A stretch of 64,000 nt of DNA, from assembly GCF_017948595.1 (NCBI RefSeq), contig NZ_JAGFBV010000002.1, positions 186,001-250,000 on the forward strand, written 5' to 3'. Of the stretch, positions 42,601 through 60,846 are shown piece by piece. The position numbers were made by a program, and so were the translations under genes. Each line of letters begins with the position of its first letter. The stretch's first letter is position 1. The notes beneath the pieces were generated by a model. That model made no database searches. It had not been told where the DNA came from and worked only from the letters and a program-made list of their open reading frames with translations. Source of the stretch: Flavobacterium geliluteum. Its GTDB lineage: Bacteria; Bacteroidota; Bacteroidia; Flavobacteriales; Flavobacteriaceae.

Positions 42601-43458
42601 ATTTTTTCCGTACGCAGCATTAGCAGTCGCATTCCATATAATACCAGAACCAGAATCTAAATAATTCTGTGCTACTGTTTGATCTAAACTTACTCCATAT
42701 TTTATTCCCAGATAAGAGTTCACGCGTTGTTTCTCAGCAAGCGTCAACTCTCTTTCATAGGCAATAACCTCTTGCATAAGACCATTAAATTCTTCTGGCT
42801 GTGACCCTAATATAGCACCTTGTGCTGTTTGTATAAAATCAGGATTAGGAGTTGTTGACGCATTTTTACCATCAAGAGATAATATTCCGGAACCTGTAAC
42901 ATTATAGCGCCAAGAAAACCCTTGTATGTGAGTTTTTCCTGCGGTCATTGGGATACTAGGAGCATTAGGCCAATCTCCATCATACCAATAAGGATTCCCC
43001 CCAGTTGCACCCATAACTGGAGTATTTGCAGTTCCTGGAGCTGCTAATGTGGTTGAACCTCCAAATCCAAAAGTATCTTGAGCACCTGCCACACTTGTTT
43101 TATTAAGAACTACATGAAGGGTTCCGTTAAGATTATCAGCCGTAAAGGGAGCATTTGTTACTACTCTACTTCGCAAAAATTTATTTGTAACAAAATTAAT
43201 AGCGGGATGAAAATTATAAACTGCTGCTGCTGCTGTAAGTGTAGGTTGAGCAGTAGCATTTGTTTGATCAAAATTATTAGGGGTAGCAATTCCTGATTGA
43301 TCTGCCCAATTGCTTACATTGGTTCCCGAGGTTGTAATACCCACTTCTGGTTTTAGCCAAATACGTAAATTAGCACTTACACCTCCGGGAGCCGTTTGGG
43401 AAAATCCCGCCATGCTACATTGTAGCAAGAATATGATAATTCGTAATTTTAATTTCAT
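39661..43458 (-). CDS. N-terminal fragment of the disrupted adhesin (signal peptide, N-terminal module, seven Calx-beta repeats)
   Basis: This is the 1,265-aa piece with the native ATG and signal peptide. It ends ANKKY-stop, where intact repeats read NKVLSITP. If translated alone it would be exported by Sec but lack the CHU_C domain needed for T9SS passage, so it would probably stay periplasmic and be degraded. Confidence 0.8.
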   Translation of the reverse strand: MKLKLRIIIFLLQCSMAGFSQTAPGGVSANLRIWLKPEVGITTSGTNVSNWADQSGIATPNNFDQTNATAQPTLTAAAAVYNFHPAINFVTNKFLRSRVVTNAPFTADNLNGTLHVVLNKTSVAGAQDTFGFGGSTTLAAPGTANTPVMGATGGNPYWYDGDWPNAPSIPMTAGKTHIQGFSWRYNVTGSGILSLDGKNASTTPNPDFIQTAQGAILGSQPEEFNGLMQEVIAYERELTLAEKQRVNSYLGIKYGVSLDQTVAQNYLDSGSGIIWNATANAAYGKNIAGIGRDDLSSLNQKESQSVNTGFQVTIGLTTIEPTNAGNTAAFGSDKNFMVWGDDGAAATFSTPTTNGHGVDTRYTRIWKIQETGNVGIVKFAVPSTIGASGKVYLVRSTNPTFDAGDEYIPLTTYTVGSIAYLACDINFNTGDFFTLATNTNPATIALSITPATATVAEGSTQIIKVGFPTGITLVTNTIADYTITGTGINGTDCTTLSGSVTIPAGQNSVDINVAALSDNVLETNETITLTGTTVTSIEGSEWTTVAANKTTTVTITDANPASDKFLSFVPTTISTPEGTATSVVVSLPSGITAVNDITFNYAVSGTASSGSDFTALSGTGTIVAGQNSVSIAVTPLTDSIIEPNETIILTGGAITGSPLTGFTWSSSANTSTITITDVTSAASKILNITPTAVSVAEGSPTTLTVSLPTGITVASPLVVSYTVSGTATSVTDYTALTGSVTIPAGSGSATITVAALTDSLIEANETVIVTGGTTAGYTWGSSDVATVTITDVSNAASKVLSITPATVSIVEGGSTTLTISLPTGVIVASPLTVSYTISGTATSATDYNALSGTVIIPAGSGSTTITVASLSDISIEPDETVILTGGTTSGFTWNASASNSTVTITDVTSPANKTLSFSPTTVSTAEGTTTVLTVSLPTGITSTSPITADYTVTGTATSGTDYTALTGSVTIPAGQNSITINMSALTDGAIESNETVILTGGTITATPLTGFTWNVSANTATVTITDVSDPASKVLSITPSTVDVAEGSNTILTISLPTGVTTANALAVNYTVSGTAISGTDYTALTGSVTIPAGQGSATITLAASADSLIESSETVIITGATTAGFTWNPSANIATITITDVTNAANKVLSITPATVSTAEGTATVLTVSLPTGITTATSIVVNYIVSGTATSATDYTALSGSVTIPVGQGSATINVSALTDGIIESDETVVVTGGTTSGFTWSPSASSSTVTITDVTSAANKKY

Positions 43459-46781: not shown

Positions 46782-48020
46782 TTAAAAAGTAACACGGGTC
46801 GATAACCTCCTGGCACCTGCTGAATTGGGATGAATTTCATCTCTCCAAAATTCTGATGCATTCAAAAGTCCACGGTAATCAATGATTCGGCACTGAAAAC
46901 GATATCCATTATTAATAAAACGATTTTTAATCTGACACAGAAGCGCATAAAATCGGTCTAATAATCGAATAATAATATAACATCTTAAGATTTCGTCAGC
47001 AATTCCAAGGCGATCAAAAACTGGTTTTATCCAAGGTCCCAAAGGCAGATCGACACCCACAATTGATGGTCGTACTCCCAGTTTGAATAAAGGATAATCG
47101 TATGTATGCATATAAAATATTGTATTTGCTGTAACATGCGCATTTACAATACTTCCAAAACCAAGGTAATTACGCAAAATAGTATTAAAAATGGCATTGA
47201 GATTGACCGTATTAAAAAGCGTAGCATCAAAAGCATTGGTGTTTAAATATCTTTTATAAAGAATACATTTTTGATACAGAACATCGCCAGAAGGCAAACT
47301 TTTAAGCTCATTTAATTTTGACTGATCTGTAAAGAAACCCGAATTAAAAGAGGTAACTCCGGGGTTTAAAATTCTTCCAAGTTGAGGAAAAACATCATTT
47401 CCGCCTCCGCTAAAATAAATTCGATCAATACGATAACCGCTAATATACTGTACAAAATGAGTTTTATCTGCATACATCTGCGACGTTGTTTCACCAAATT
47501 TTGCCAAGTGAAGGCAGTTGAGATTAAGCCTTTGATTTCGATCTGTAATCGTATCATATAAATCCAAAACCCTTGGTACGGGATAATCTAACCAAGAATC
47601 TCCCTCAAAAATCACATTTAGCGTATTTGTATTTGAGGCATTTCTTCTAAACAAAAATGAATTGGTCAAAAAAGGCTGATGGAGCGATTCATCCTCACTT
47701 TCTGCCAGCGAAACACCTGTCAAGTTTAATTGTTTTAATGCTTTATGCGTCGCATCATTTGGACGAATGAGACCGCTAATCACGATTTTATTATTAGCTT
47801 GAAAATTCAGAATAGAGATAATAGTAACGTCTGTTTTATCATTTACAATACTACCATTAGCCTGCACAGGATAACCAAGTGTTCTCAAATAAGTCTGAAT
47901 TTGCACGACATCTGATGCATTATTTACAGCATTCAGTCCAACGCTATTCGTTAATTCTGTTACTAAGCTCGGGATTTGATTTATGACTGGGGGATTGGCA
48001 ATTAAATTTTCCATGATCAT
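46782..48020 (-). CDS. SGNH/GDSL-type hydrolase with N-terminal peptidoglycan-binding-like domain
   Basis: The 412-aa protein has no signal peptide. Residues about 25-100 resemble a PG_binding_1 three-helix module (DVVQIQTYLRTLGYPVQANG...FQANNKI). The hydrolase part has block I FEGDSWLDYP (Ser142), a GGGNDVF Gly/Asn block and block V DEIH (Asp394, His397), a complete SGNH triad. Likely an esterase or lipase acting on an acyl ester. It is the last gene of the cassette, 6 bp after the subtilase gene. A signal-less enzyme with a wall-binding-like domain is unusual; export would need another route. Confidence 0.8.
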   Translation of the reverse strand: MIMENLIANPPVINQIPSLVTELTNSVGLNAVNNASDVVQIQTYLRTLGYPVQANGSIVNDKTDVTIISILNFQANNKIVISGLIRPNDATHKALKQLNLTGVSLAESEDESLHQPFLTNSFLFRRNASNTNTLNVIFEGDSWLDYPVPRVLDLYDTITDRNQRLNLNCLHLAKFGETTSQMYADKTHFVQYISGYRIDRIYFSGGGNDVFPQLGRILNPGVTSFNSGFFTDQSKLNELKSLPSGDVLYQKCILYKRYLNTNAFDATLFNTVNLNAIFNTILRNYLGFGSIVNAHVTANTIFYMHTYDYPLFKLGVRPSIVGVDLPLGPWIKPVFDRLGIADEILRCYIIIRLLDRFYALLCQIKNRFINNGYRFQCRIIDYRGLLNASEFWRDEIHPNSAGARRLSTRVTF

Positions 48021-48026
48021 CTTTAT

Positions 48027-49700
48027 TTAGATTAATTTATTTGGATTAATGTAGCCATGACCGGCTCTAAAAATCTCAAAACTGTTGTCTTTAAAAGAAG
48101 CTGTATCGCAAGCACTAAAAAGTTTTTTTCGTATTGAAATAATATCCAGATCAGGCTCTTTTTCGAGTATTTTAACGACTAAAGAAGCAACATAAGGCGC
48201 CGCCATACTGCTTCCGCTTTTAGACGTTAGCTTGTTTGAAGCCCTATTTTCTCTATTAGAAGACGAGCAGGACGATTTTATCTTAAAACCAGGTGCCACA
48301 AGCTCTGGCTTCATACGCCCATCGGCCGTGGGACCGGAACTACTGAAAGACAATATAGATTTTGCCTCCTCATTTTGATTGTAAGCACCCACAACAATAC
48401 TATATTTTGAATTACAGATCGAATTGGTGGTATGCGTTTTGTTCGCAATTGCAGGCAAAAAGATAGATTGGCCTCCGTCATCTCGTTCGATGTAACAATG
48501 GTAGCGGCCATTTTTGACCGTTCTCCCAACTAATTCGATCTCCCAAAATTTTGAATTTAATTTGCCATTAATCAAAATATTAATTTGATTTTTATTTGTA
48601 TTTGGCTCATTGCTTCTGTGTAGACAAATGCCTACCTCAGCGCCATCTTTTAGAATCAATTCATCTTTAAAAGGCGTTGATGCAAGCAGTAGTTTTTTAT
48701 TATCATCATAAATATTGATACTTAAAATATCATCTCCGTGATACCAAATTTCCATTTCATTGGGTGTACGATCATATTTCTTAAACATCCACGGAATTTT
48801 AATTTTCTGATTGACTTTTATATCGCCATAGGTATGCACATTTGATTGATGATAATTGCCGGTACTCTGCACTATTGCCGTACCTTTTCTCGTAGTAAGA
48901 ATATGATCAATAGCTTGTTCTACGAGAGTTTGTCCCGTATGAGCATCGCCATGACCTCCTAAGCTCATATTGATCACAATGGGTCGCTGGCCTGCTTCGG
49001 TTAACAAAAAATCAATGCCTTCGATTAGTTTTACCGAATCGCCCAAAGACAAATTTGATCCGTTTACGAGATTGGTTCCCATATCGACCGCTATGATAGA
49101 AGCATTTGGCGCAAAGCTTTTTGGTGCTACTGCCCCATTTCCGCAGGCAATTCCGAGAACATGAGTTCCATGAGTTCCGTTTCCAAACAAATCTGATTTT
49201 CCCGGATGGTAGCCCAATTTTTTAAACGGTAAATCATCAAGTAAACTTTCATCAAGCTGAGTTTGATTAATGATCCTTCCATAACTATATTTGTTTCGAT
49301 CGCAGCGATCAGATTGTACCCAAATTTTTTCGAAACGGGTTTTGCCATTATTGATAAAATCTGGATGCGTAAAATCGAAACCAAAATCAATAATTCCAAA
49401 TACAACTTTCGAAACACTGTTGGTAAGAACCTCATTTTTTTGATCTAAAACATGAGTTTGAGGATCTACCTCAACACGATCATTAGCAGGAACCACACTT
49501 GGAGCTTTTAAACTTTTTAGTTTTTTGCTGTTATAGATAGCGCATAAAAAACGACGCTTTGTTCTGATACTTACAATTTTTCCGAACTCTGAAATAATTT
49601 TACAATGATCCGGATATTCATTCTCTTTTTCGAGACGCATTAACAGCGATAATTCTTCGTCAGGATTGCCGTATAATATAACTTTGAGTCTTGGATCCAT
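48027..49700 (-). CDS. Subtilisin-like (S8) serine protease without signal peptide
   Basis: The 557-aa protein has the complete subtilase triad: Asp105 in FGIIDFGFDFTHPDF, His177 in NGTHGTHVLG and Ser498 in SKSGSSMAAPYVAS. Residues 1-90 may be a short prodomain. Between His and Ser is an insert of about 130 aa (near residues 290-420; beta-rich, with MEIWYHGDDILSINIYDD), recalling the jelly-roll insert of Csp-type subtilases; that comparison is inference. No Sec, Tat or T9SS signal is visible. It probably matures or degrades other cassette products. It lies 18 bp after the 150-aa gene and 6 bp before the SGNH gene. Confidence 0.88.
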   Translation of the reverse strand: MDPRLKVILYGNPDEELSLLMRLEKENEYPDHCKIISEFGKIVSIRTKRRFLCAIYNSKKLKSLKAPSVVPANDRVEVDPQTHVLDQKNEVLTNSVSKVVFGIIDFGFDFTHPDFINNGKTRFEKIWVQSDRCDRNKYSYGRIINQTQLDESLLDDLPFKKLGYHPGKSDLFGNGTHGTHVLGIACGNGAVAPKSFAPNASIIAVDMGTNLVNGSNLSLGDSVKLIEGIDFLLTEAGQRPIVINMSLGGHGDAHTGQTLVEQAIDHILTTRKGTAIVQSTGNYHQSNVHTYGDIKVNQKIKIPWMFKKYDRTPNEMEIWYHGDDILSINIYDDNKKLLLASTPFKDELILKDGAEVGICLHRSNEPNTNKNQINILINGKLNSKFWEIELVGRTVKNGRYHCYIERDDGGQSIFLPAIANKTHTTNSICNSKYSIVVGAYNQNEEAKSILSFSSSGPTADGRMKPELVAPGFKIKSSCSSSNRENRASNKLTSKSGSSMAAPYVASLVVKILEKEPDLDIISIRKKLFSACDTASFKDNSFEIFRAGHGYINPNKLI

Positions 49701-49718
49701 GAGTTTTTGTTTTAGAGA

Positions 49719-50171
49719 TTAATTCAGATTTAATAATTTTGTTTCAATATCATTTAATTCTTGATACAAAAGCATAAAGTATAAATTCTCATCAATCACA
49801 TTAAGAAAGGCCTCTTCAAAATCTCCAGCATTAGACAGATAAGCTTTGATTTCTCGAACATACTGACTATTTATAAATCCTATTTTTTCTAATCCTAAAA
49901 TAAAGTCCTGATCTTCTTCTTGAAGTTTAGAAAAATTAGTATTCGTAAAAATCTGGACAAATAATTCGTTGGTTTTTTCAATTAAAATGATTTTTTTTGA
50001 AACTAAATTTTTAAGTAAAAAAGCTTTTTCTTCTTGTGCCTTTTTGGAAAATTTAAAACTTTTTTTTAGAAGATTAGGTCGAATCTGATTTATCTTTTTT
50101 AGAATTTGCGTCACGTTTTTTTCAATTTTATTCAAACTGATGGTTTCTTGGTTAGTTATTTCAGCCTTCAT
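49719..50171 (-). CDS. Unrecognised Lys/Glu-rich helical protein
   Basis: The 150-aa protein is predicted entirely helical with heptad-like patterns (ISLNKIEKNVTQILKKINQI; LVSKKIILIEKTNELFVQIF). It has no signal peptide, Cys or recognisable domain. I do not recognise the family. It sits between the 107-aa protein and the subtilase, and may be a structural or chaperone-like partner in the cassette. Confidence 0.7.
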   Translation of the reverse strand: MKAEITNQETISLNKIEKNVTQILKKINQIRPNLLKKSFKFSKKAQEEKAFLLKNLVSKKIILIEKTNELFVQIFTNTNFSKLQEEDQDFILGLEKIGFINSQYVREIKAYLSNAGDFEEAFLNVIDENLYFMLLYQELNDIETKLLNLN

Positions 50172-50307
50172 TTTTGTTGGTTTTTATTGTTTTTTTTCTG
50201 AACTTTTTAATTAGTAATAATAGTGGATTCTCTTTATTTGTAACTGATGATTAAAATGTCTTAGCATCTTAATCATCTTCCTTTTAAGTCACTTTCTGAA
50301 GATTTTT

Positions 50308-50631
50308 TTATGCAGTTTGACCAGCCCCTTCTACACCCTCTATTGTTAGATTGTTTTTTTTATCATCATTTGTTTCTTTTAAGCCAGCGATTGGGTGAGT
50401 AATAATAGCTGTATCATGAGTTGCTTCAGTTACTTTTCTAGCAGCAGCGCTAAACTTCTCGCCTTCGCTTTTGGCTTTGTTATCAATGATTAAATAGCTC
50501 ATCAAGGGATTTTCTGAAATCATACCCGCCAAAAGTGCCGTATTGGTTATTTCCTGATTTCCGGGAACATTATAAAAAGTGGCTCTGCTATTGGCTATAA
50601 CGTAACTGATTAATAAATTAAATGGATTCAT
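50308..50631 (-). CDS. Unrecognised small protein of the cassette
   Basis: The 107-aa protein is taken from the ATG at 50631 (MNPFNLLISYVIANS). A longer reading from 50679 would begin inside the upstream terminator hairpin and is rejected. It has a hydrophobic N-terminal third, then a polar Lys/Thr/Asn-rich tail ending EGVEGAGQTA. No known domain. A terminator before it and a 136-bp gap after it suggest possible separate expression levels within the cassette. Confidence 0.65.
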   Translation of the reverse strand: MNPFNLLISYVIANSRATFYNVPGNQEITNTALLAGMISENPLMSYLIIDNKAKSEGEKFSAAARKVTEATHDTAIITHPIAGLKETNDDKKNNLTIEGVEGAGQTA

Positions 50632-50660
50632 TGTTTCGTATTTTAAATTAATAGAAATAA

Positions 50661-50690
50661 AAGGGCAATTGGGTAACAACTGCCCTTTTT
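50661..50690 (-). terminator. Terminator inside the cassette, after the Met-rich protein
   Basis: AAGGGCA (50661-50667) pairs with TGCCCTT (50681-50687), with T-runs on both sides. It begins 5 bp after the stop at 50695 and overlaps the 5' extension of the next ORF, which decides that gene's start at 50631. Confidence 0.75.
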
Positions 50691-50694
50691 ACAT

Positions 50695-51423
50695 TTACTT
50701 ATTCATCATCATCATCATGACAATTGGCAACATGTTGTTGGATTCTGTCGAGTTGTTTTTATTTTGCTCAGAAATTAATAAAACCATCGGCAACATCATA
50801 TTCATATTGTCTGATTTACCTGAGCCCGAATCTCCCATAGTAGTCATCATTGGCAACAATAAAGACATTGTCTGATCTACATAAATAGCTTTTGCATCCT
50901 TTTTTTCAATGATGTGTGCAGGTATCTTTACGCCTTTTTCAGTACTAGCTTCAGGAACAAATTCCAAATTTTCAGGTTTTAGTTTTGGCTGATTCAACAA
51001 AGATCCCATCATACTCATCATTTGCATATTTTTCAAAACTTTAGTTTGGTTGTCGCCTTTTCGGGCGTCAATTTTTGCAAATTCGGTATGTTTTTGATCT
51101 AAAGCCACCAACGCTTTATTAGTAGCCAGCGAAGTCTTTTTAAGCTCATTCACTTGGTTAGAAATCGAATCTAACGATTTCTTCAGTTCACTTTTGGTCG
51201 CATAATCATTAGCTCTTCCGCTCAGGGTCTTTCCAAAATTAGATCTTTGTTTTACCGCCGAGCTCACATTAGGTCTGATTCCTTTTATGGATGGTCTTCT
51301 GCGTCTTGCAGCCTCATCAAAGCTTTCGTCGTAGCTTTCTAATAAATCTTCGCCTAAAAGATCCTCGTTGTAGTAATCTTCATTTAATAAATCTTCGTCT
51401 AAATAACTTTCGAAATAATTCAT
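50695..51423 (-). CDS. Unrecognised protein with acidic leader-like N-terminus, coiled coil and Met-rich tail
   Basis: The 242-aa protein has an unusual composition. Residues 1-35 are strongly acidic with repeated EDLL/NED motifs, followed by ARRRRPSIKG, a possible processing site. Residues about 75-125 are a helical coiled coil (KSELKKSLDSISNQVNELKK). The C-terminal half is Met-rich with repeated hydrophobic segments (NMQMMSMMGSLLNQP, LLLPMMTTMG, MLPMVLLISE) and ends MLPIVMMMMMNK. It has no signal peptide. I do not recognise the family. The acidic head resembles that of the 289-aa protein at the start of the cassette. Confidence 0.7.
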   Translation of the reverse strand: MNYFESYLDEDLLNEDYYNEDLLGEDLLESYDESFDEAARRRRPSIKGIRPNVSSAVKQRSNFGKTLSGRANDYATKSELKKSLDSISNQVNELKKTSLATNKALVALDQKHTEFAKIDARKGDNQTKVLKNMQMMSMMGSLLNQPKLKPENLEFVPEASTEKGVKIPAHIIEKKDAKAIYVDQTMSLLLPMMTTMGDSGSGKSDNMNMMLPMVLLISEQNKNNSTESNNMLPIVMMMMMNK

Positions 51424-51441
51424 AATTTTAAATATTAATGG

Positions 51442-51846
51442 TTAATTTTTATTGAAATAATGTTTGTTATATTTCTGGATGGCCGGCTGAATATATTTAT
51501 TAAAAAGAATAAAATCAGGAATGCCGTTGCCTGGTTTTCCGGTTCCGAAACATGCTGAGCACTCATTATCTTCGCCAAAACATTCCGTGCAGGCACCAAT
51601 GGCTTTTGCCAAATCATCGTTCTGATTTAACTCAAATTCCAACTGCAACTTTAGATTTTCGATCATGGCAAAAAGTTTGTGATTGATTTTTTTGAGTTTT
51701 TTAATTCTTTCCTCAACTTCTAAATCAATTCTTGGAATTTCTTTTCCTTCTTCCACTTCATTTTTTCCCATCATGGGTTGCATAAGCTCAAAATATTTAG
51801 CCATTTCAGGATTATGTTCTTTCAAATATTCTAAATAAGCCTCCAT
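51442..51846 (-). CDS. Small protein with two CxxC motifs (zinc-ribbon-like)
   Basis: The 134-aa protein begins MEAYLEYLKEHNPEMAKYFE and has a helical middle (VEERIKKLKKINHKLFAMIE). A CTECFGEDNECSACFGTGKP segment near residue 88 has two CxxC pairs and a CxGxG-like end, reminiscent of one DnaJ-type zinc repeat. It has no signal peptide. Possibly a chaperone-like or scaffold partner of the neighbouring proteins; function unknown. Confidence 0.7.
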   Translation of the reverse strand: MEAYLEYLKEHNPEMAKYFELMQPMMGKNEVEEGKEIPRIDLEVEERIKKLKKINHKLFAMIENLKLQLEFELNQNDDLAKAIGACTECFGEDNECSACFGTGKPGNGIPDFILFNKYIQPAIQKYNKHYFNKN

Positions 51847-51864
51847 TAGTATAACTTTTAGGTT

Positions 51865-52734
51865 TTATAAATTTGCAATAGAATTTTCAAGTCTATTGAT
51901 TCGGTTAGGAGTGTTGGTACCCACAAATTGGCCATATTGGTCCACGTAATAATCTTCGGTCGGAATTAATCCTCCGTTGTAATATTCATACAAAATATTC
52001 TCGGTCAGGTAATTTACACTTTCGATTAATTCTGCAAAAGAATGGCTTTCTATTGGCGAATTTGGGCTTGCCGTTCCTAAACTTTGCTGTGCCTGACCCG
52101 CCTGAAATTGTGGATTATTTATCACACCACCCAGTTGGTTGTACAACCCTTGTACTCTGCCAATATCCTGCGCTGCCTGCGGACGAAGCACAACCGGATT
52201 ATCCTGCACATACTGCTGAATAGCCGGAAGAGCCGCTCTGCCTGCATCGGCCAAATATCGGGTTGTATTGCTCCAGGCTTGCCCCACTGGCGAAGGCGCT
52301 TGTCTGCGTCTGTAATTGTTATTATTTGCCGGTCTGCGCTGTTGCTGTGGAGGTGCTGGTCTGCGTTGTTGTTGCTGACGATTATTGTCTAAAGCAGTAC
52401 TTGCAGATCCCGCCAAATTACTTACCAAACCACCAACTGCTCCCCCAATTTGCGGGGCTCCAAAATAAGTACCCACCGCAGTGCCTACAATAGGAGCAAC
52501 TGCAGAAACGCCACGTAACACTCCCGAACCAATATTGCTGGCCACATTACCTAAGCTTGACCAAAATCCTTCTGCTTCACTTTCAGACATTAGATCTACT
52601 CGTGACAGCAGGACATCTTCTAGTTCATTTTCACTTAAATTAGAATATTCCGGCCCCAATACATATCGTACAGCTTCAAAATAATTGTCTTCGCTGAATG
52701 ATTCTCCCTGAAAAACTTCATGATATAAACTCAT
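51865..52734 (-). CDS. Unrecognised first cassette protein: acidic head, Gly/Ala-rich hydrophobic core, Gln/Arg-rich linker
   Basis: The 289-aa protein's residues 1-57 are acidic (GESFSEDNYFEAVRYVLG, SEDEL-like stretches, SESEAEGFW). Residues about 58-115 are small-residue hydrophobic (VLRGVSAVAPIVGTAVGTYF), like a membrane-inserting or self-assembling segment. Residues about 120-155 are Gln/Pro/Arg/Asn-rich (QQQQRRPAPPQQQRRPA). The rest is mixed, with a C-terminal DYYVDQYGQFVGTNTPNRI. No Sec signal. It is the first gene after the divergent promoter region, so probably the most expressed member of the cassette. I do not recognise the family. Confidence 0.7.
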   Translation of the reverse strand: MSLYHEVFQGESFSEDNYFEAVRYVLGPEYSNLSENELEDVLLSRVDLMSESEAEGFWSSLGNVASNIGSGVLRGVSAVAPIVGTAVGTYFGAPQIGGAVGGLVSNLAGSASTALDNNRQQQQRRPAPPQQQRRPANNNNYRRRQAPSPVGQAWSNTTRYLADAGRAALPAIQQYVQDNPVVLRPQAAQDIGRVQGLYNQLGGVINNPQFQAGQAQQSLGTASPNSPIESHSFAELIESVNYLTENILYEYYNGGLIPTEDYYVDQYGQFVGTNTPNRINRLENSIANL

Positions 52735-52858
52735 AATTCTTAGTATTATAATTAGCTCTTACTCTTTTATTAGGCTTTTCAGATTTCGCCTATTCATTTT
52801 GTGCACAAAAAGAACGATGTAAAATTGATTTATTATAATTTACTATAAAACAGTGTTT

Positions 52859-52940
52859 TACCCCAATTTTTTAAATAAATTTACCCTAAAAAAAAGGGTA
52901 TTTTCACCCTTGTAAACTTGGGCCGTTTAAAATAAATTTG
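52859..52940 (+). promoter_or_regulatory. Divergent regulatory region with TTTACCC repeats and a -7 box
   Basis: The 271-bp gap between the divergent operons holds three TTTACCC/TTCACCC-type copies (52859-52865, 52880-52886, 52903-52909) and an inverted AGGGTA forming TACCCT-N7-AGGGTA. TAAATTTG at 52933-52940 fits the TAnnTTTG box for the plus-strand operon, with TTG at 52910-52912 about 20 bp upstream. Operator role is inferred. Confidence 0.5.
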
Positions 52941-53005
52941 CTCATTACTATTGATGTAAACCACTATTTAACAATCAATAAAACCATTAACTATAAAAAA
53001 CGATT

Positions 53006-53464
53006 ATGAAAAACGAACCAGGAAGACCGGCACAATTAATTACAAAAAAATTTGCTAAAGAATTGCATTCTAATTTTATGAAGTACAGAGCCAGCATAAT
53101 AGCGAAGTACATTAAAAAAGAAGATGCTAACGCCGTTTGGTTTTCTGTAGAAGAGCTAGAAAATTATATTCATTACATCAAGTCTAAAGGCGCAAAAAAG
53201 GGTTTTGCTGTAAACGGAATCCGCTTTTATTTTGGAGTATATCCAGATGAAAAAAAATATGCTGATAAAGCAGGCTTGATGACCCTTTTTCTAACAGCTA
53301 CAGGAAAAAGAATTAGACCCGTTGCACTAAACAGTGTACAAACCTTTGCTTTGACTCGCGAAAATAATGATTCTGATGATCAAAATGATAACAATGAAGA
53401 CATACAAAGCATCGAACCAATGAATTACGGAAGCATTGGCAGACCACCGAGCTTATTATACTAG
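53006..53464 (+). CDS. Unrecognised 152-aa cytoplasmic protein in the regulator operon
   Basis: It begins MKNEPGRPAQLITKKFAKEL. The fold looks mixed alpha/beta with AVWFSVEELENYIHYIKSKG and GIRFYFGVYPDEKKY near the middle. The tail is acidic and Asn-rich (ENNDSDDQNDNNEDIQ). It has no signal or membrane segment. It is first in a four-gene operon ending in a two-component system and is transcribed away from the small-protein cassette. Function unknown; similar short proteins seem to recur in Bacteroidota, from memory. Confidence 0.75.
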   Translation: MKNEPGRPAQLITKKFAKELHSNFMKYRASIIAKYIKKEDANAVWFSVEELENYIHYIKSKGAKKGFAVNGIRFYFGVYPDEKKYADKAGLMTLFLTATGKRIRPVALNSVQTFALTRENNDSDDQNDNNEDIQSIEPMNYGSIGRPPSLLY

Positions 53465-53470
53465 AAAATT

Positions 53471-54118
53471 ATGTTCGAATTTTTAAGATTTTATATTGTT
53501 TATTTAGTCGTACTCTCCGGGATTATTGGCTTACTTTCATGGCATAAACTTCCTTCCAGAAAAGCTAAATTCTTGGTGATTCTAATTTGGTTTTCTGCTG
53601 TAATAGAGAAAGTTGGCTATTATTTTACCGAGTGGACAGGCCTGTTAAACTATCCTGTATTCAATTTTTACATGCTCGTTAGTTTTTGTGCTTATATCAT
53701 ACTTTTAAGGAGTCTTTTATCAAAAATAAAATATCGCATGATAGCGCTGCTTAGTTTGATACTATTTTTACTTTCCTTTTTTATAAATATTGTATACGTC
53801 AAAGAGTACCTAAACCACTCCTATACTTACAGTTACGCAACTGGCGTATTGCTTATTATGATATTATCTTGCTTGTATTTGGTAGAAATCTTTAATTCGG
53901 AGAAAATATTAAATTTTAAAAAATCGGTCTTTTTTTGGTACATATTAGGCATATTAGTTTTTCATGTACCTTTTTTGCCTTTCATGCTTGCTTTAAACTG
54001 TTTTTTGATCAAACAAGACGAATCTGTTTTTAGTTTAGTCGTATTTATTTTAAATGTTTTGGCCCACAGCTGCTATATTACCGGATTCTTATGGAGCGAA
54101 AAGAAATACAATTATTAG
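53471..54118 (+). CDS. Multi-pass membrane protein (about seven helices) upstream of a histidine kinase
   Basis: The 215-aa protein is almost wholly hydrophobic, with about seven segments (FYIVYLVVLSGIIGLLSW, MIALLSLILFLLSFFINIVY, FFWYILGILVFHVPFLPFML among them). It lies 6 bp after the 152-aa gene and overlaps the kinase gene by 28 bp, so translation is probably coupled. A membrane sensor or partner for the single-helix kinase is a reasonable inference, since that kinase has no input domain of its own. Confidence 0.78.
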   Translation: MFEFLRFYIVYLVVLSGIIGLLSWHKLPSRKAKFLVILIWFSAVIEKVGYYFTEWTGLLNYPVFNFYMLVSFCAYIILLRSLLSKIKYRMIALLSLILFLLSFFINIVYVKEYLNHSYTYSYATGVLLIMILSCLYLVEIFNSEKILNFKKSVFFWYILGILVFHVPFLPFMLALNCFLIKQDESVFSLVVFILNVLAHSCYITGFLWSEKKYNY

Positions 54119-54876
54119 TTATTTCGTTAGGTATTGTTTTTTTAACTTTACTCATAATTCTGCTTGTCATATTCTTTTATTTTTTGAAAAAGAAAAACAA
54201 TTATTTGGTCGAAAAAATGGAATCAGAACTCTATTTTCAATCCGAATTAATTAAGACAAGAATAGAGATTAAAGACCAGACCCTGAGCGAAATCAGTAAG
54301 GAACTGCACGATAATATAGGCCAAATTGTTTCTGTGGGCATTATGCATCTCAACATGTATCTGGACAGCGGAAAACCTGTACAGGTGAATGAATTACATG
54401 ATTTGAAAAAAATACTCGCCAAATCACTAGACGAAATTCGGATTTTGTCCCGAATCATCAACAAAGATAATTTACTGCAAAGCAATTTTATAGAAGCGAT
54501 CAAGCAAGATTTAGAACGTATAAAAAAACTAAAAAACATTCAATACAATTATAATCTTACGGGAGAAATCCCTGAGATTAGCCAAGAACATGATTTGTTT
54601 ATTTACCGAATTTTTCAGGAAGCACTGCACAACAGCCTCAAACATTCGCACAGTAATTTATTTGAAGTAAATATTCATACCACCGATACCGTTTTTCTTC
54701 TGGAAATAAAAGACTTCGGTATTGGTTATGACACAAGCCAGATCAACGCTGGATTGGGGTTGAGCAACATGAAATTAAGAGCCCGATTAATTGACGCTAA
54801 CTTAATAATGCAGTCAGATTCGTCAGGAACAACCGTAACTTTAGAATACTTTTTAAGCAAAACCAATGAAACCTAG
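54091..54876 (+). CDS. NarX/DegS-type sensor histidine kinase
   Basis: The 261-aa protein has one membrane helix (about 8-32), a short coiled coil, a HisKA_3-type dimerisation motif ISKELHDNIGQ with His73, and an ATPase domain (RIFQEALHNSLKHSHSN, KDFGIGYDTS, GLGLSNMKLRA). It has no periplasmic sensor domain. It overlaps the membrane protein upstream by 28 bp and the regulator downstream by 11 bp, so the three are co-expressed. It likely phosphorylates the NarL-type regulator and may control the divergent cassette. Confidence 0.9.
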   Translation: MERKEIQLLVISLGIVFLTLLIILLVIFFYFLKKKNNYLVEKMESELYFQSELIKTRIEIKDQTLSEISKELHDNIGQIVSVGIMHLNMYLDSGKPVQVNELHDLKKILAKSLDEIRILSRIINKDNLLQSNFIEAIKQDLERIKKLKNIQYNYNLTGEIPEISQEHDLFIYRIFQEALHNSLKHSHSNLFEVNIHTTDTVFLLEIKDFGIGYDTSQINAGLGLSNMKLRARLIDANLIMQSDSSGTTVTLEYFLSKTNET

Positions 54877-55516
54877 TACTAAAAACAAAATTATTATTGT
54901 AGATGATCATCAGTTATTTTCGCAATCTTTAGAACTGCTCATCAATAGTTTTAAAGATTTTGAAGTGATCAATCGTTTCGAAAACGGCAAAGTATTTCTT
55001 TCTTACCTGCAGGAGCAACCAGATGCAGAAGTAGACTTGATTTTATTAGATGTTAACATGCCCGTTTTAGACGGCGTAAGCACCATGAAATGGATAAAAG
55101 AAAACAGACCCGATCTTAAAGTGATTGCGCTCTCTGTAAATGATGATGAAGAAATTATTATCAAAATGATTACCAATGGCGCCAAAGGGTATTTACTAAA
55201 AGATACCTCGCCAGAAATCTTCAAAGAAGCGATCATTTCTGTCATCGAAAAAGGCTTTTATTTTACCGAGTTAGTCTCAGGCATGCTCGTTAAGAAAGCC
55301 AATGATGACTCGAAAAAAATCAATTTGAAAGAAAAAGAAATTGTTTTTATAAAACATGCCTGCACCGAAAAAACCTATAAAGAAATCGCCTCAGAAATGT
55401 GTTTAAGTCCGAAAACAATCGATGGATACCGGGAATGTTTGTTTGATAAACTCGAAATCAAAACCCGAATTGGGCTGGTCTTGTACGCCATCAAACACAA
55501 AATTGTCTTGGTATAA
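54866..55516 (+). CDS. NarL/LuxR-type response regulator
   Basis: The 216-aa protein's receiver domain has DD at 13-14, phospho-acceptor Asp62 in LILLDVNMPVLDG and Lys in KGYLLKDTS. A LuxR-type helix-turn-helix (about 148-212; LKEKEIVFIKHACTEKTYKEI, SPKTIDGYRECLFDKLEI) follows. It overlaps the kinase gene by 11 bp. It is the likely DNA-binding output for the divergent promoter region at 52735-53005. Confidence 0.92.
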   Translation: MKPSTKNKIIIVDDHQLFSQSLELLINSFKDFEVINRFENGKVFLSYLQEQPDAEVDLILLDVNMPVLDGVSTMKWIKENRPDLKVIALSVNDDEEIIIKMITNGAKGYLLKDTSPEIFKEAIISVIEKGFYFTELVSGMLVKKANDDSKKINLKEKEIVFIKHACTEKTYKEIASEMCLSPKTIDGYRECLFDKLEIKTRIGLVLYAIKHKIVLV

Positions 55517-55752: not shown

Positions 55753-55983
55753 GTAAAACTTTACGTCCGTCATGCGAAATTTCACGTCAGTGATGTGAAA
55801 CTTTACGTCTAACATTTGAAATTTAACGTCAGCGATGTGAAATTTTACGTCTGACATGTCAAATTTCACGTCAGCGATGTGAAACTTTACGTCTAACATT
55901 TGAAATTTCACGTCAGCGATGTAAAACTTTACGTCTAGCATGTGAAATTTCACGTCCATGATGTGAAATTTTACGTATGTAAT
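55753..55983. repeat. Array of eleven 21-bp palindromic tandem repeats
   Basis: There are eleven contiguous 21-bp units of the form GTGAAATTTCACGTCAGCGAT. Forms with TTTCACGTC-AGCGAT and CTTTACGTC-TAACAT alternate. Most units hold the dyad GTGAAA-TTTCAC or a near version. The frame stays open on the minus strand only because 21 is a multiple of three (repeated DVKFHIA), and I do not call it a gene. There are no spacers, so it is not CRISPR. The 21-bp period puts each dyad on the same face of the helix. Confidence 0.9.
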
Positions 55984-56142: not shown

Positions 56143-56227
56143 TATAAGATCTAGATTTTTATCAAAAACACATAATAATCTTACGTAAAGCACACTTTAT
56201 TGAGATTTTATCACTAAATTGGTAGGT

Positions 56228-57355
56228 ATGAAAACAAATTGTGATGTGCTGATTATTGGCGGCGGACTTGCCGGTTTAACCAGCGCCATAAATTTATCTA
56301 AAAAAGGCTTAGAGGTAATCCTGATAGAAAAATCAGCTTATCCGCGGCACAAGGTATGCGGTGAATATATTTCGAACGAAATTTTGCCGTACCTCAGCTG
56401 GCTTGGTGCAGATGTATCAGAATTACGTCCTACGACTATCACCAGATTTGAATTTACTTCCGGTAATGGAAAAACAGTAACCGCAAAACTTCCTTTAGGA
56501 GGATTTGGCATTAGCCGATATGCGCTTGATGATTTTTTATATCAAAAAGCATTGGCAAACAACTGTAACGTTATAAAAGATACTGTTACGGATATTTCTT
56601 TTGGCAATGACAGTTTTACGGTAAGCACTTCAGACCAAATTTTGACTGCCAAAATAGTCTTGGGCGCTTTTGGCAAACGATCTAATATTGATCAAGTTTT
56701 GGAACGGGATTTTATTAGTAAAAAATCGCCCTGGCTGGCTGTTAAGGCACATTATTCGGGTAAATTTGATCATGATCTCGTGGCTTTGCACAACTTCAAA
56801 GGCGGTTATTGCGGCGTTTCTAAGGTTGAAGATGATAGCATCAATATTTGTTATCTGGCCGATTATGCCACCTTTAAAAAATATAAAAATATCGAGGAGT
56901 ATCAGCAAAATGTGCTGTACAAAAACAAAAACCTGAAAGCTATTTTTGAAAACAGTACCCTTCTTTTTGAAAAACCACTCACGATAAGCCAAATTTCTTT
57001 TGATAAAAAACAGCCTGTAGAAAATCACATTCTGATGATTGGCGATACTGCAGGCCTGATTCATCCGCTGTGTGGTAACGGAATGGCAATGGCGATACAC
57101 GCTGCCAAAATAGCATCAGAACTGGTGCTGGAGTATTACAACGGTGAGATAACCTCTCGAGAATCATTAGAAAAAAAATATAAAAAGGAATGGAATACGC
57201 ATTTTGGCAAAAGAGTACGCATGGGTAGAATTCTGGCTCAACTACTTAAAAATAAAATCATCACCAACCAATTGGTCGGACTATTGGCATCATTACCATC
57301 ACTACTCCCTAAAATTATCAAACAAACGCACGGAAAACCAATAGCAATAAATTAA
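56228..57355 (+). CDS. FAD-dependent oxidoreductase (geranylgeranyl-reductase/hydroxylase type)
   Basis: The protein has 375 aa from the ATG at 56228; a TTG three codons earlier is less likely. The FAD fold begins CDVLIIGGGLAGLTSAINLSKKG with the GxGxxG dinucleotide motif, followed by PRHKVCGEYIS typical of geranylgeranyl-reductase-like and phenol-hydroxylase-like flavoproteins. GDTAGLIHPLCGNGMAMA near residue 275 is the second FAD motif. It is the first gene of a seven-gene polyketide operon. By analogy with Streptomyces SrsC it may hydroxylate the resorcinol ring to a quinone; reduction of a polyene chain is the alternative. Confidence 0.85.
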   Translation: MKTNCDVLIIGGGLAGLTSAINLSKKGLEVILIEKSAYPRHKVCGEYISNEILPYLSWLGADVSELRPTTITRFEFTSGNGKTVTAKLPLGGFGISRYALDDFLYQKALANNCNVIKDTVTDISFGNDSFTVSTSDQILTAKIVLGAFGKRSNIDQVLERDFISKKSPWLAVKAHYSGKFDHDLVALHNFKGGYCGVSKVEDDSINICYLADYATFKKYKNIEEYQQNVLYKNKNLKAIFENSTLLFEKPLTISQISFDKKQPVENHILMIGDTAGLIHPLCGNGMAMAIHAAKIASELVLEYYNGEITSRESLEKKYKKEWNTHFGKRVRMGRILAQLLKNKIITNQLVGLLASLPSLLPKIIKQTHGKPIAIN

Positions 57356-58069
57356 ATGGATATAAGTACCCAATACAGAACTCAGGAAACTGAGATAATG
57401 GATGATTTTTTGCTTGAAGGCGAAGAATTACGTGCTGCACTAGACCAAATTGCCAACATTAATCAGTTGCTGGGTGGCAACCACATTACTTTGAATGGAG
57501 TAAAAAAATTATTAAAAAAAACAGATATTACCAAAACAATCGTGATTGCAGATATTGGCTGCGGCAACGGAGACATGCTGCGCATGCTCGCACAATACGG
57601 ACTAAAGCATACTATAAACTTTAAACTGATCGGCATCGATGCAAATGAATATACGGTAAACTATGCCAAAACCCTCTCGGATGAATATTCAAACATAGAA
57701 TATGCATGTGTTGATATTTTTAGTGAAGATTTTAAGGCCATACAATATGACATTGTTTTGTGTACACTTACCCTGCACCATTTTACCAATGAGCAGATAT
57801 TAAATATAATCACTATCTTTAGTACTAATGCAACAACCGGAATCATAGTCAACGATTTGCATCGAAGCAAATTGGCTTACAGACTTTTTGAGATAGTTTG
57901 CACTATTTTTAACCTCAATAGGATGTCCCGAGAAGATGGACTGGTTTCTATTTTGAGAGGCTTTAAGAAAACCGAATTAGAGGAGTTTTCTAAAAAATTA
58001 AATCTAAAAAACTATACCATATACTGGAAATGGGCTTTTCGCTACCAATGGATAATTACAAAAAAATGA
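57356..58069 (+). CDS. Class I SAM-dependent methyltransferase
   Basis: The 237-aa protein has a SAM-binding motif VIADIGCGNGDMLRML near residue 60, GIDANEYTVNYA for the ribose-binding acid, and DIVLCTLTLHHFTNEQ near 135. It starts directly at the stop of the FAD gene and its stop overlaps the next gene (ATGA). Between the oxidoreductase and a type III polyketide synthase, it is likely to O- or C-methylate the phenolic product, as SrsB does in Streptomyces; substrate not proven. Confidence 0.87.
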   Translation: MDISTQYRTQETEIMDDFLLEGEELRAALDQIANINQLLGGNHITLNGVKKLLKKTDITKTIVIADIGCGNGDMLRMLAQYGLKHTINFKLIGIDANEYTVNYAKTLSDEYSNIEYACVDIFSEDFKAIQYDIVLCTLTLHHFTNEQILNIITIFSTNATTGIIVNDLHRSKLAYRLFEIVCTIFNLNRMSREDGLVSILRGFKKTELEEFSKKLNLKNYTIYWKWAFRYQWIITKK

Positions 58070-59118
58070 GTGTAAAAATAGTAACGGTTGCCAAGCAACT
58101 ACCAAAATATTCGCGCACCACAAACGATATACTTCCGCTTTTGGATGGATGGCTTGATGGAAAAGAAGAACGCTTTATAAAAAAAGTAAAAAAGATTTTC
58201 GAGGGCGCAGCTGTAGACCAACGTTACTCGATAATGGATCCCGCAGAGGTTTTTACAGCGACTTCGTTTGAAGATAAAAATGATATTTACACCAGAGAAG
58301 TCATTATTCTGGGAGAACAAGTACTAGAGAAAGCACTTAAAAAAGCAGGTTGGGATCCTACAACACTGGATTATATTATCACGGTAAGCTGCACCGGCAT
58401 CATGATCCCCTCATTAGATGCTTACCTTATCAATAAAATGAAACTGAAACAGGATATAGTGCGCCTCCCCGTAACAGAAATGGGTTGTGCCGCAGGAATA
58501 TCGGGCATCTTGTATGCTAAAAACTTTTTGAAATCTAATCCGGATAAACGAGCAGCAGTCATTGCGGTGGAGTCTCCAACAGCAACATTTCAGCTTGATG
58601 ATTTTTCGATGCCTAATATTGTCAGTGCGGCTATTTTTGGCGATGGAGCCGCCTGTTGTCTTTTGTCATCGTATGAAGAGGACAAGGGTCCAGAAATAAT
58701 TGACGAACAAATGTATCATTTTTATGATGCCGAACACATGATGGGCTTTAAGCTAACTAACAGTGGTTTACAAATGGTTTTGGATATTGAAGTTCCGGAC
58801 ACTATCGCCTCTCATTTTGGAGCTATTATTCATCCTTTCTTGCAACAAAACAATCTTGAAATCGCAGACATAAACCATATGATATTTCATCCCGGCGGAA
58901 AAAAAATAATCACAACAGTAGAGTCGCTGTTCTCGGGATTAGGCAAAAATATTGATGATACCAAAGAAGTTCTTAAGCGATACGGAAACATGTCGAGTGC
59001 AACTGTTTTGTACGTTTTAGAGCGCATCATGGATCGCAATCCGAAATCTGGCGAGAGAGGATTAATGTTAAGCTTTGGTCCCGGATTTTCGGCACAACGG
59101 GTTTTATTACAATGGTAA
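58066..59118 (+). CDS. Type III polyketide synthase (chalcone/stilbene synthase family)
   Basis: The protein has 350 aa from the ATG at 58066, which overlaps the methyltransferase stop in ATGA; an in-frame ATG at 58030 lies inside that gene and is less likely. The catalytic triad is complete: Cys141 in TEMGCAAGISG, His275 in MIFHPGGKK and Asn308 in RYGNMSSATV, with the C-terminal GPGFSAQRVLLQW. The family condenses an acyl starter with malonyl-CoA units to give alkylpyrones, alkylresorcinols or phloroglucinols. The co-encoded ACP, ketosynthase and dehydratase suggest an ACP-bound or dedicated fatty starter. Confidence 0.93.
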   Translation: MSVKIVTVAKQLPKYSRTTNDILPLLDGWLDGKEERFIKKVKKIFEGAAVDQRYSIMDPAEVFTATSFEDKNDIYTREVIILGEQVLEKALKKAGWDPTTLDYIITVSCTGIMIPSLDAYLINKMKLKQDIVRLPVTEMGCAAGISGILYAKNFLKSNPDKRAAVIAVESPTATFQLDDFSMPNIVSAAIFGDGAACCLLSSYEEDKGPEIIDEQMYHFYDAEHMMGFKLTNSGLQMVLDIEVPDTIASHFGAIIHPFLQQNNLEIADINHMIFHPGGKKIITTVESLFSGLGKNIDDTKEVLKRYGNMSSATVLYVLERIMDRNPKSGERGLMLSFGPGFSAQRVLLQW

Positions 59119-59137
59119 TTTTTCAGAAAAACAAATT

Positions 59138-59575
59138 ATGGAATTGACCGATATTATAGCCAAATTGCCTTATAGCGAGCCCTTTTTATTTGTAGACGAA
59201 ATAGTAGCTGCAGATGAAAACGGAATTACGGGCACTTATACCTTTAGAGAAGATTTATATTTTTATAAAGGACATTTTAAAGGGAATCCTGTCACTCCGG
59301 GTGTAATTCTCACCGAAACGATGGCTCAGATTGGCATGGTTTGCCTTGGTATTTATTTATTGAATGATGCTGCAAAAGAAGATACCGTGATAGCGTTTAC
59401 ATCGGCAGATATGCAGTTTTTAAAACGTGTATATCCTAATGAAAAAGTAACAGTAACTTCTCAAAAAACATTTTTCAGATTCGGCAAACTTAAATGCAAT
59501 GTTGTGATGAAAAACGAGGCGGGACAAGAAGTTTGTAAAGGTATTGTTGCGGGTATGATTACTACAAAATTATGA
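59138..59575 (+). CDS. FabZ-like (3R)-hydroxyacyl-ACP dehydratase, hotdog fold
   Basis: The protein has 145 aa from the ATG at 59138; an earlier in-frame start lies inside the synthase gene. YKGHFKGNPVTPGVILTE matches the FabZ/FabA active-site helix (GHFPxxPVxPG), with His46 and Glu60 as the catalytic pair. It probably dehydrates an acyl-ACP intermediate made by the neighbouring ketosynthase, giving an unsaturated starter chain. Its stop overlaps the next start (ATGA). Confidence 0.87.
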   Translation: MELTDIIAKLPYSEPFLFVDEIVAADENGITGTYTFREDLYFYKGHFKGNPVTPGVILTETMAQIGMVCLGIYLLNDAAKEDTVIAFTSADMQFLKRVYPNEKVTVTSQKTFFRFGKLKCNVVMKNEAGQEVCKGIVAGMITTKL

Positions 59576-60846
59576 AAAAGCGTGTCGTAATAACAGGTTT
59601 GGGAGTCGCTGCTCCTAACGGAGTGGGAATTCCTGCATTTACTGATGCCCTAAAAAACAGCGTATCAGGAATTCGTCATCATGCACAATTACAGGCGCTG
59701 CAGTTTTCTTGTCAGATAGCGGGTCAACCCCAAATATCAGACGAACTTAAAAATCAATATTTTACAGAACTTGAATTACGCGGTTTTAATAGCACGGGTA
59801 TTTTGTACGGCGTAATAGCTGGAATAGAAGCTTGGACAAATGCAGGATTGACAATCGAAACTAATAACGAACCGGATTGGCATAGCGGTACCATCTTTGG
59901 ATCTGGGACTTCGGGCATAGATAAATTTCGCGAAAGCATTTATAAAATAGATGATTTGCAAACCCGCAGGCTTGGTAGTACCGTTGTGGCTCAGACGATG
60001 AACAGCGGTATTAGTGCGTATCTTGGCGGTAAACTGGGGCTTGGCAATCAGGTAACAACAAATTCCTCGGCTTGTGCAACGGGTACCGAAGCTATCATGA
60101 TGGCCTATGATCGTATACAATCCGGGCAAGCAAAACGCATCCTTGCGGGAAGCACCGGCGATAGCGGTCCGTATATTTGGGCAGGATTTGATGCGCTTCG
60201 CGTATGCAGTTCAAAATACAACGATACTCCTGAGCTAGGTTCTCGTCCTATGAGTGCGAGCTCGGCTGGGTTTGTACCCGGCAGTGGCGCGGGAGCATTG
60301 GTCGTAGAAGAACTGGAAACTGCCCTAAAACGAGGTGCTACGATTTATGCTGAAATATTGGGTGGTAATGTAAACTCTGGCGGGCAGCGAGGCACTGGCA
60401 GCATGACCGCACCAAACAGTGAGGCGGTACAACAATGCATCAAAAATGCGCTGCGCAATGCCGGCATTTCTGCGAATGATATTGATGCTATAAACGGTCA
60501 TCTTACGGCAACCACAAAAGATAGTCTGGAGATTGAAAACTGGACCAAAGCATTGAACAGAAGCGGCAATGATTTTCCGTATATCAATTCCCTAAAAAGC
60601 ATGACAGGTCATTGCCTTAGTGCTGCCGGCAGTATCGAAAGTGTAGCCAGCGTTTTGCAACTTCATGAAGGCTTTATATTTGCTAATACCAATTGTGATG
60701 ACCTTCATCCCGAAATTGGTTCACAGATTGATCCGACAAAAGTAATTTTAAAAACGATTTATTCGCAACCCAATATAATTGCAAAAGCAAGTTTTGGTTT
60801 TGGCGATGTAAATGCGTGTATACTATTTAAAAAATTTGATAATTAA
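59572..60846 (+). CDS. Beta-ketoacyl-ACP synthase (KAS II/FabF-like)
   Basis: The 424-aa protein has the KAS triad: Cys168 in TTNSSACATGTEA, His310 in INGHLTATTKDSLE and His347 in KSMTGHCLSAAGS. The usual GT after the first His is LT here, a mild variation. It should elongate acyl chains on the adjacent ACP. No ketoreductase is encoded in the operon, so reduction would come from the housekeeping FabG, or the enzyme makes one dedicated extension. Confidence 0.92.
   Translation: MKKRVVITGLGVAAPNGVGIPAFTDALKNSVSGIRHHAQLQALQFSCQIAGQPQISDELKNQYFTELELRGFNSTGILYGVIAGIEAWTNAGLTIETNNEPDWHSGTIFGSGTSGIDKFRESIYKIDDLQTRRLGSTVVAQTMNSGISAYLGGKLGLGNQVTTNSSACATGTEAIMMAYDRIQSGQAKRILAGSTGDSGPYIWAGFDALRVCSSKYNDTPELGSRPMSASSAGFVPGSGAGALVVEELETALKRGATIYAEILGGNVNSGGQRGTGSMTAPNSEAVQQCIKNALRNAGISANDIDAINGHLTATTKDSLEIENWTKALNRSGNDFPYINSLKSMTGHCLSAAGSIESVASVLQLHEGFIFANTNCDDLHPEIGSQIDPTKVILKTIYSQPNIIAKASFGFGDVNACILFKKFDN

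What the first reader, a model, noticed from the sequence alone, without database searches (positions are those of the whole stretch)
46782..55516. Signal-less subtilase + SGNH hydrolase + five unknown small proteins, divergent from a membrane-protein/kinase/regulator operon
Seven closely spaced minus-strand genes encode a complete subtilase, a complete SGNH hydrolase with a peptidoglycan-binding-like domain, and five proteins I cannot place. None has a Sec, Tat or T9SS signal. Two of the unknowns share an acidic leader-like head; one is Met-rich and one has a Gly/Ala hydrophobic core like a self-inserting or self-assembling protein. Facing them is a four-gene operon with a seven-helix protein and a two-component system. 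A regulated cassette whose products are processed by its own protease is plausible: a secreted peptide system, a released particle or a lysis-type device. That function is inference.
Basis: partly seen in the sequence, partly recalled or inferred. Interest (0 to 1): 0.82.

Follow-up and report, generated by a model that had tools for sequence, protein, structure and literature searches.

The report
Cross-phylum signal-less wall-attack gene cassette
A block of genes found in the same order in four bacterial phyla encodes a protease, usually beside or fused to a predicted cell-wall-acting enzyme, plus small proteins of three families that match no curated family; it is predicted to form a device that would push these enzymes through a membrane, likely against other bacteria.

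Summary
The seven minus-strand genes and the facing four-gene regulatory operon are real. The core, p289 - p134 - p242 - subtilase, recurs in the 27 loci I compared: 24 Bacteroidota (22 of them chosen by p289, so p289 is no test there) and plasmids of Cupriavidus, Streptomyces and Gemmatirosa chosen by the subtilase. In Gemmatirosa p242 rests on position. In 398 Flavobacterium genomes the 15 with p134 are exactly the 15 with a full-length p289 match. A p134 tblastn (E up to 1) over 72,556 plasmids hits three records, the same three cassette plasmids. Three core families reach no curated cut-off. After the subtilase, or fused to it, comes exchangeable cargo, mostly predicted to be wall-directed. 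No phage, T6SS or (in 15 of 18 carriers) contractile-sheath gene was found with it. My reading: a regulated membrane-breaching device delivering a protease and wall-acting cargo, likely antibacterial. Gene set, co-inheritance and cargo exchange are shown; membrane breaching, delivery and target are inferred. Seven searches of an open-access library found no paper on it.

The parts
51865..52734 (-). p289: predicted helical N-terminal domain (1-70), glycine-zipper core (GxxxG run 71-102), basic/Pro/Gln linker, helical acidic C-terminus; predicted membrane-active carrier
51442..51846 (-). p134: coiled coil plus four-cysteine motif GAC..C.G....C..C.G.G..G...PD; predicted zinc-binding adaptor or chaperone (function inferred)
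   Evidence: 13 invariant columns in 10 sequences from three phyla
50695..51423 (-). p242: acidic head, Arg patch, long helix (77-143), three short Met-rich hydrophobic helices; predicted scaffold or membrane-active partner
50308..50631 (-). p123: poorly conserved gene in the slot before the subtilase; the slot gene in Cupriavidus has a PASTA domain
49719..50171 (-). p150: accessory gene seen only in Flavobacterium copies
   Evidence: 11 of 27 loci
48027..49700 (-). S8 subtilase with conserved N-terminal domain and intact triad
46782..48014 (-). SGNH hydrolase with N-terminal peptidoglycan-binding-like domain; the cargo of this copy
52735..53005 (.). Divergent intergenic region, 86% mean column identity in 12 Flavobacterium sequences
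52756..52792 (-). DUF805b RNA element in the p289 leader (40 bits, gathering 35.6)
53006..53464 (+). p152: conserved unknown; relatives in L025, L027, L028 and L065 have lipoprotein- or signal-anchor-like N-termini by eye; possible sensor partner
53471..54118 (+). TM7: membrane protein with seven hydrophobic segments
54091..54876 (+). Histidine kinase (HisKA_3, HATPase_c, one membrane segment)
54866..55516 (+). Response regulator (Response_reg and LuxR/GerE domains)

Best explanation
It is a conserved gene cassette whose core (p289, p134, p242 and a subtilase) recurs in the same order in four bacterial phyla (in one of them p242 is placed by position alone), and it likely works as a regulated, signal-peptide-independent device in which predicted membrane-active small proteins would carry the subtilase and its predicted wall-acting cargo across a membrane, likely to damage other bacteria. 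Steps: (1) the kinase and regulator, with the seven-segment protein and p152, would switch on the divergent promoter (inferred). (2) p134, with its cysteine motif, would keep the hydrophobic p289 and p242 soluble (inferred). (3) The glycine zipper of p289 and the Met-rich helices of p242 would insert or assemble in a membrane (inferred from sequence and low-confidence models). (4) The subtilase, which in L029, L046 and L063 is physically fused to wall-acting domains (shown), would travel with the cargo and may cut it free (inferred). (5) The cargo would act on the cell wall (inferred from its domains). Gene set, order, co-inheritance and cargo exchange are shown.
For:: of 27 loci (window; 21; G1040 and G1211; three plasmids), p289, p134 and S8 found in 27 and p242 in 26. 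Most Bacteroidota loci also trained these profiles or were chosen by p289, so the independent tests are: p134 trained on Bacteroidota alone scores 5e-21, 5e-18 and 8e-11 in Cupriavidus, Gemmatirosa and Streptomyces, nothing in 13 other loci or 30 shuffles; p242 3e-9 and 3e-5 in Cupriavidus and Streptomyces. Window p134 tblastn at E <= 1: 3 of 72,556 plasmids (4e-12, 4e-5, 0.06), the same three, beside S8. Genus: p134 in 15 of 398 genomes, the same 15 that have full-length p289. S8: over 1100 bits in 3 of 90 relatives, G000, G076, G077, which carry the cassette; the two other hits are 61-63 bits. Cargo: SGNH in 16 of 27 loci; S8 fused to VanY (L029), to peptidoglycan-binding domains (L046, L063); separate proteins with endolysin matches (L065); thermolysin after S8 (Streptomyces). 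PASTA domain in the Cupriavidus p123-slot protein.
Against: No immunity gene was identified. L019, L025 and L027 show no adjacent cargo. With the Bacteroidota-only profile p289 is weak elsewhere: 4e-3 in Streptomyces and Gemmatirosa, 2e-6 for a second Cupriavidus copy, the in-place Cupriavidus copy not listed; three other glycine-zipper proteins, fetched because they match p289, score better (1e-9 to 6e-8). p242 in Gemmatirosa fails (1.9) and the p123 profile finds nothing outside Bacteroidota. A whole-length S8 relative in Agrobacterium (99% covered, 32% identity) has no core genes beside it. The plasmid-borne and L063 copies lack the regulators nearby. Models of p289 and p242 are poor and match no fold; hydropathy finds no classical membrane segment in either. 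No experiment.
Confidence: 0.42

Rival explanations
1. Programmed self-lysis or release module: the small proteins act like a holin, the cargo like an endolysin, and induction by the two-component system opens the producer's own envelope.
For: Cargo of L065, L063 and L046 matches endolysin families; no immunity gene identified; the unit is linked to a two-component system in most loci.
Against: Cargo is varied (SGNH, VanY, thermolysin and others) and three loci show none; no PHROG hit below 0.01 for the five small proteins.
Confidence: 0.22
2. Anti-phage or stress-triggered suicide system: the sensor block detects envelope damage and the protease and cargo kill the infected cell.
For: S8 matches PADLOC subtilase (2e-24) and weakly IetS (3e-5) models; patchy spread.
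Against: Those matches are to the general subtilase fold; none of the nine other window proteins tested matches a PADLOC model; wall-binding cargo points to the envelope.
Confidence: 0.12
3. Non-classically exported degradative enzymes on a surface scaffold, serving nutrition or biofilm turnover.
For: Protease, esterase and thermolysin are ordinary degradative types; the genomes are mostly environmental by record title.
Against: Rare and patchy (15 of 398); wall-lytic cargo; no surface-anchor or T9SS domain listed.
Confidence: 0.11
4. Relic of a prophage or tail-like element.
For: Endolysin-like cargo; four weak S8 matches in phage records.
Against: p242 not in phage records; p242 and p134 not in viral contigs; order kept in 27 loci without capsid or tail genes seen.
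Confidence: 0.03

Closest known systems
Cdz contact-dependent glycine-zipper bacteriocins of Caulobacter (PMC5380434; passages seen)
   Same: Glycine-zipper proteins, divergent operons, patchy horizontal spread.
   Different: Cdz has 84-86-aa toxins, a type I exporter and an immunity gene; none was seen here, and here a protease and wall-acting cargo are added.
Polymorphic toxins (PMC3482391; passages seen)
   Same: Conserved part followed by exchangeable C-terminal enzyme domains; subtilisins listed among processing proteases.
   Different: No signal peptide or known trafficking domain identified, no immunity gene identified; the conserved part is the protease plus a separate small-protein set.
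eCIS (PMC8213781; passages seen)
   Same: Enzyme cargo at the 3' end; some eCIS operons have a histidine kinase and a GerE regulator.
   Different: No sheath, tube or baseplate genes; sheath family absent from 15 of 18 carriers.
Phage holin-endolysin cassettes (recalled)
   Same: Small predicted membrane-active protein plus peptidoglycan-binding hydrolase without a signal.
   Different: No phage family match of the core, protease present, found in bacterial genomes and plasmids with a two-component system.

Membership tests
S8 subtilase family | Peptidase_S8 profile and Asp/His/Ser triad | tested here: met
   121.6 bits; triad invariant in 13
SGNH hydrolase family | Ser, Gly/Asn and Asp-x-x-His blocks | tested here: met
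   Blocks invariant in 8 sequences; Pfam GDSL profile only 14.3 bits, cut-off 32.9
eCIS or tailocin | Contractile sheath (PF04984) | tested here: not met
   Absent from G000 and 15 of 18 carriers; one over cut-off (G254), two below
T6SS | VipB/TssC sheath (PF05943) | tested here: not met
   0 of 18; the control rang only in E. coli, so a divergent Bacteroidota sheath could be missed
Cdz-like bacteriocin | Type I exporter in the cluster | tested here: not met
   No exporter among the window cassette genes
Cdz-like bacteriocin | Dedicated immunity protein | tested here: inconclusive
   None identified; p150 and p123 are unassigned
Polymorphic toxin | Conserved N-terminal part with exchangeable C-terminal enzyme domains | tested here: met
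   S8 followed by VanY, peptidoglycan-binding or unnamed regions
Polymorphic toxin | Known trafficking domain and immunity gene | tested here: inconclusive
   None identified in the profile searches; no dedicated immunity search
Phage lysis cassette | Holin family match or phage neighbourhood | tested here: not met
T9SS cargo | C-terminal sorting domain | tested here: not met
   None listed in NCBIfam or Pfam for the window proteins

The most novel reading that the evidence does not exclude
A new class of bacterial delivery device, not built from phage or known secretion parts and shared by Gram-negative and Gram-positive phyla: a glycine-zipper and Met-rich protein assembly with its own cysteine-motif chaperone loads a subtilase, swaps wall-breaking enzymes on it (as a fused tail or as the next gene) and breaches membranes to deliver them.
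Probability: 0.35. Interest if true: 0.93.

Novelty: categorically new. Interest (0 to 1): 0.76.

Why it matters
A four-gene core kept in order from Bacteroidota to Streptomyces, Cupriavidus and Gemmatirosa plasmids, with three families below every curated cut-off tried, is unusual. If it moves enzymes through membranes without Sec, T9SS, T6SS or phage parts, it would be a new way for bacteria to attack or open cells and a possible protein-delivery tool. Even if it is only a lysis module, it defines one with testable parts.

Tried and rejected
Structure: models of p289 (pLDDT 52.7) and p242 (61.1) gave no Foldseek match at E <= 0.001. PDB sequence searches with the p134 and p242 profiles gave only weak coiled-coil-type hits. 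Two L065 cargo proteins hit the peptidoglycan-binding-like part of one PDB 'Effector protein' weakly (7e-4, 7e-3). RNA: 0 of 54 predicted leader pairs show a two-sided change, so I claim only the Rfam hit; the other DUF805b places in G000 precede unrelated genes, so no regulon is claimed. Three Bacteroidota glycine-zipper proteins (L055-L057) found with the wide p289 profile have other neighbours and were rejected as members. Of the 23 plasmid records with an S8 match I looked at seven; Agrobacterium, Sphingobium, Paenibacillus and Acaryochloris were rejected as members. Rhodobacterales-type p289-like proteins (P0217 and kin) could not be placed: no genomic context was available. GC gives no sign of recent transfer (34.9% in cassette and window). 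P0082 and P0167 look chimaeric and were not used. The G158 hit (9e-4, two stops inside) was dropped. L064 was dropped as a copy of L027. Papers: seven searches on the system and two on the DUF805 RNA (82, 86) found no description; the library is open-access PMC only.

Full report
What is there. The window lies in genome G000; its p289 and p242 relatives are mostly named Flavobacterium, so I take it for a Flavobacterium. Seven minus-strand genes (p289, p134, p242, p123, p150, S8 subtilase, SGNH hydrolase) lie 12-136 bp apart and face p152, a membrane protein with seven hydrophobic segments, a histidine kinase and a LuxR-type regulator. The region between has 86% mean column identity in 12 Flavobacterium sequences and holds a DUF805b RNA element over its gathering score.

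Known parts. S8 scores 121.6 bits to Peptidase_S8 and its triad is invariant in 13 sequences from four phyla. SGNH blocks are invariant in 8 sequences. The peptidoglycan-binding domain passes the Pfam cut-off in the L009 orthologue but not in the window protein; the other 14 SGNH loci were not scanned. p289, p134, p242, p123 and p150 reach no Pfam or NCBIfam cut-off, no PADLOC model at 0.01 and no PHROG at 0.01; S8 matches PHROG proteases.

A conserved unit. One scan of genome contigs with the p289 alignment gave 21 loci. Adding the window, G1040 and G1211 (found with p242) and three plasmids (found with S8) gives 27: p289, p134 and S8 in 27, p242 in 26, kinase in 22, p152, TM7 and regulator in 21 each, SGNH in 16 (a 17th hit, 5e-8 in L063, I take for its peptidoglycan-binding part), p150 in 11. 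These counts are by score; most Bacteroidota loci were chosen by p289 and several trained the profiles, so the cross-phylum and genus tests below carry the weight. For Cupriavidus the p289 score comes from a second copy. Without regulators nearby: L026, L063 and the three plasmids; L024 shows kinase and regulator only; L029 has p152, TM7 and kinase on the same strand downstream, near its contig end. The slot between p242 and S8 holds a poorly conserved gene in most loci and none in L027.

Other phyla. S8 tblastn over 72,556 plasmids gave 23 records; I inspected seven. Cupriavidus oxalaticus, Gemmatirosa kalamazoonensis and Streptomyces canus have the core in order upstream of S8; Agrobacterium, Sphingobium, Paenibacillus and Acaryochloris do not. 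With profiles trained on Bacteroidota alone, 13 other loci and 30 shuffles as background: p134 scores 5e-21, 5e-18, 8e-11 and nothing else; p242 3e-9 (Cupriavidus), 3e-5 (Streptomyces), 1.9 (Gemmatirosa); p289 2e-6 (second Cupriavidus copy), 4e-3, 4e-3, while three background proteins, fetched earlier because they match p289, score better; p123 nothing. Cupriavidus p289 finds the Gemmatirosa one in place by tblastn (7e-4, 24% covered). Window p134 at E <= 1 hits 3 of 72,556 plasmids (4e-12, 4e-5, 0.06), these three, in place.

Co-inheritance. In 398 Flavobacterium-genus genomes the p289 profile hits 16, one weakly with two stops inside; p134 hits 15, exactly the others. S8 is strong in 3 of 90 relatives, all carriers. 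p242 is in 2 of 395 genomes of the class and 3 of 299 of the family, own included. An apt gene flanks 13 of the 21 loci, pheT also in 12; the other 8 loci and the window do not show them, so the unit sits at several sites.

Exchangeable cargo. After S8 come SGNH (16 loci), or two proteins with peptidoglycan-binding-like N-termini (L026, L028, L065; sub-threshold in the three that I scanned; the two of L065 match endolysin families at 5e-5 and 1.5e-13; L028 and the second L026 protein judged by eye), or a thermolysin (Streptomyces). S8 is fused to VanY in L029 (54 bits; the stretch also matches a tape-measure family), to peptidoglycan-binding domains in L063 and Cupriavidus (in L063 also a sub-threshold CHAP and, by eye, the lysozyme-like part of L065), and to long unnamed regions in Streptomyces and Gemmatirosa. 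L019, L025 and L027 show no cargo. So 22 of 27 loci have predicted wall-directed cargo if all SGNH loci are counted for their peptidoglycan-binding part. A domain that stands alone in one species and is fused in another usually marks a functional link (established reasoning).

Not a known system. p242 is not in phage records or viral contigs, p134 not in viral contigs; S8 has four weak phage-record matches (23-27% identity). The contractile sheath is missing in 15 of 18 carriers and VipB in 18 of 18 (weak control for Bacteroidota). Nearest ideas in print are Cdz bacteriocins (PMC5380434), polymorphic toxins (PMC3482391) and eCIS (PMC8213781); of each I saw passages only.

Mechanism. I commit to a membrane-breaching delivery device, likely antibacterial (0.42). 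Patchy spread and cargo exchange favour a weapon; endolysin-like cargo and no identified immunity gene favour self-lysis (0.22). Both need p289 and p242 to be membrane-active, which is untested: the zipper is poorly modelled and hydropathy finds no classical membrane segment.

Noticed in passing
window 56219-60846: FAD-dependent oxidoreductase, a methyltransferase-like ORF (by eye), a chalcone-synthase-like and a ketoacyl-synthase gene in a row: likely a pigment or aryl-lipid cluster.
   Followed up: partly
window 55753-55976: Tandem array of a 21-base unit, about 10 copies, with 42- and 84-base higher orders, between the regulator and the next cluster.
   Followed up: partly
window 39661-43458: 1265-aa protein with seven Calx-beta stretches.
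   Followed up: no
L055 4605-9865; L056 4806-9989: Another glycine-zipper protein family lies near toxin-like genes: an eCIS-core-domain protein (PF13699, 1.9e-15) in L056 and a weak deaminase-like hit (0.006) in L055.
   Followed up: partly
L047 7250-19719: Agrobacterium leguminum plasmid: S8 relative beside a phospholipase-D-like gene and, further on, a caspase-family gene, without the core.
   Followed up: no
G000, eight places; one at window 52756-52792: DUF805b RNA elements (RF02914), four of eight over the cut-off, before unrelated genes.
   Followed up: partly
L028 7975-8853: Transposase-like ORF (by eye) between TM7 and p152 of the Galbibacter cassette.
   Followed up: no
L046 3108-3611: Second p289-like copy on the opposite strand upstream of the Cupriavidus cassette.
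   Followed up: no
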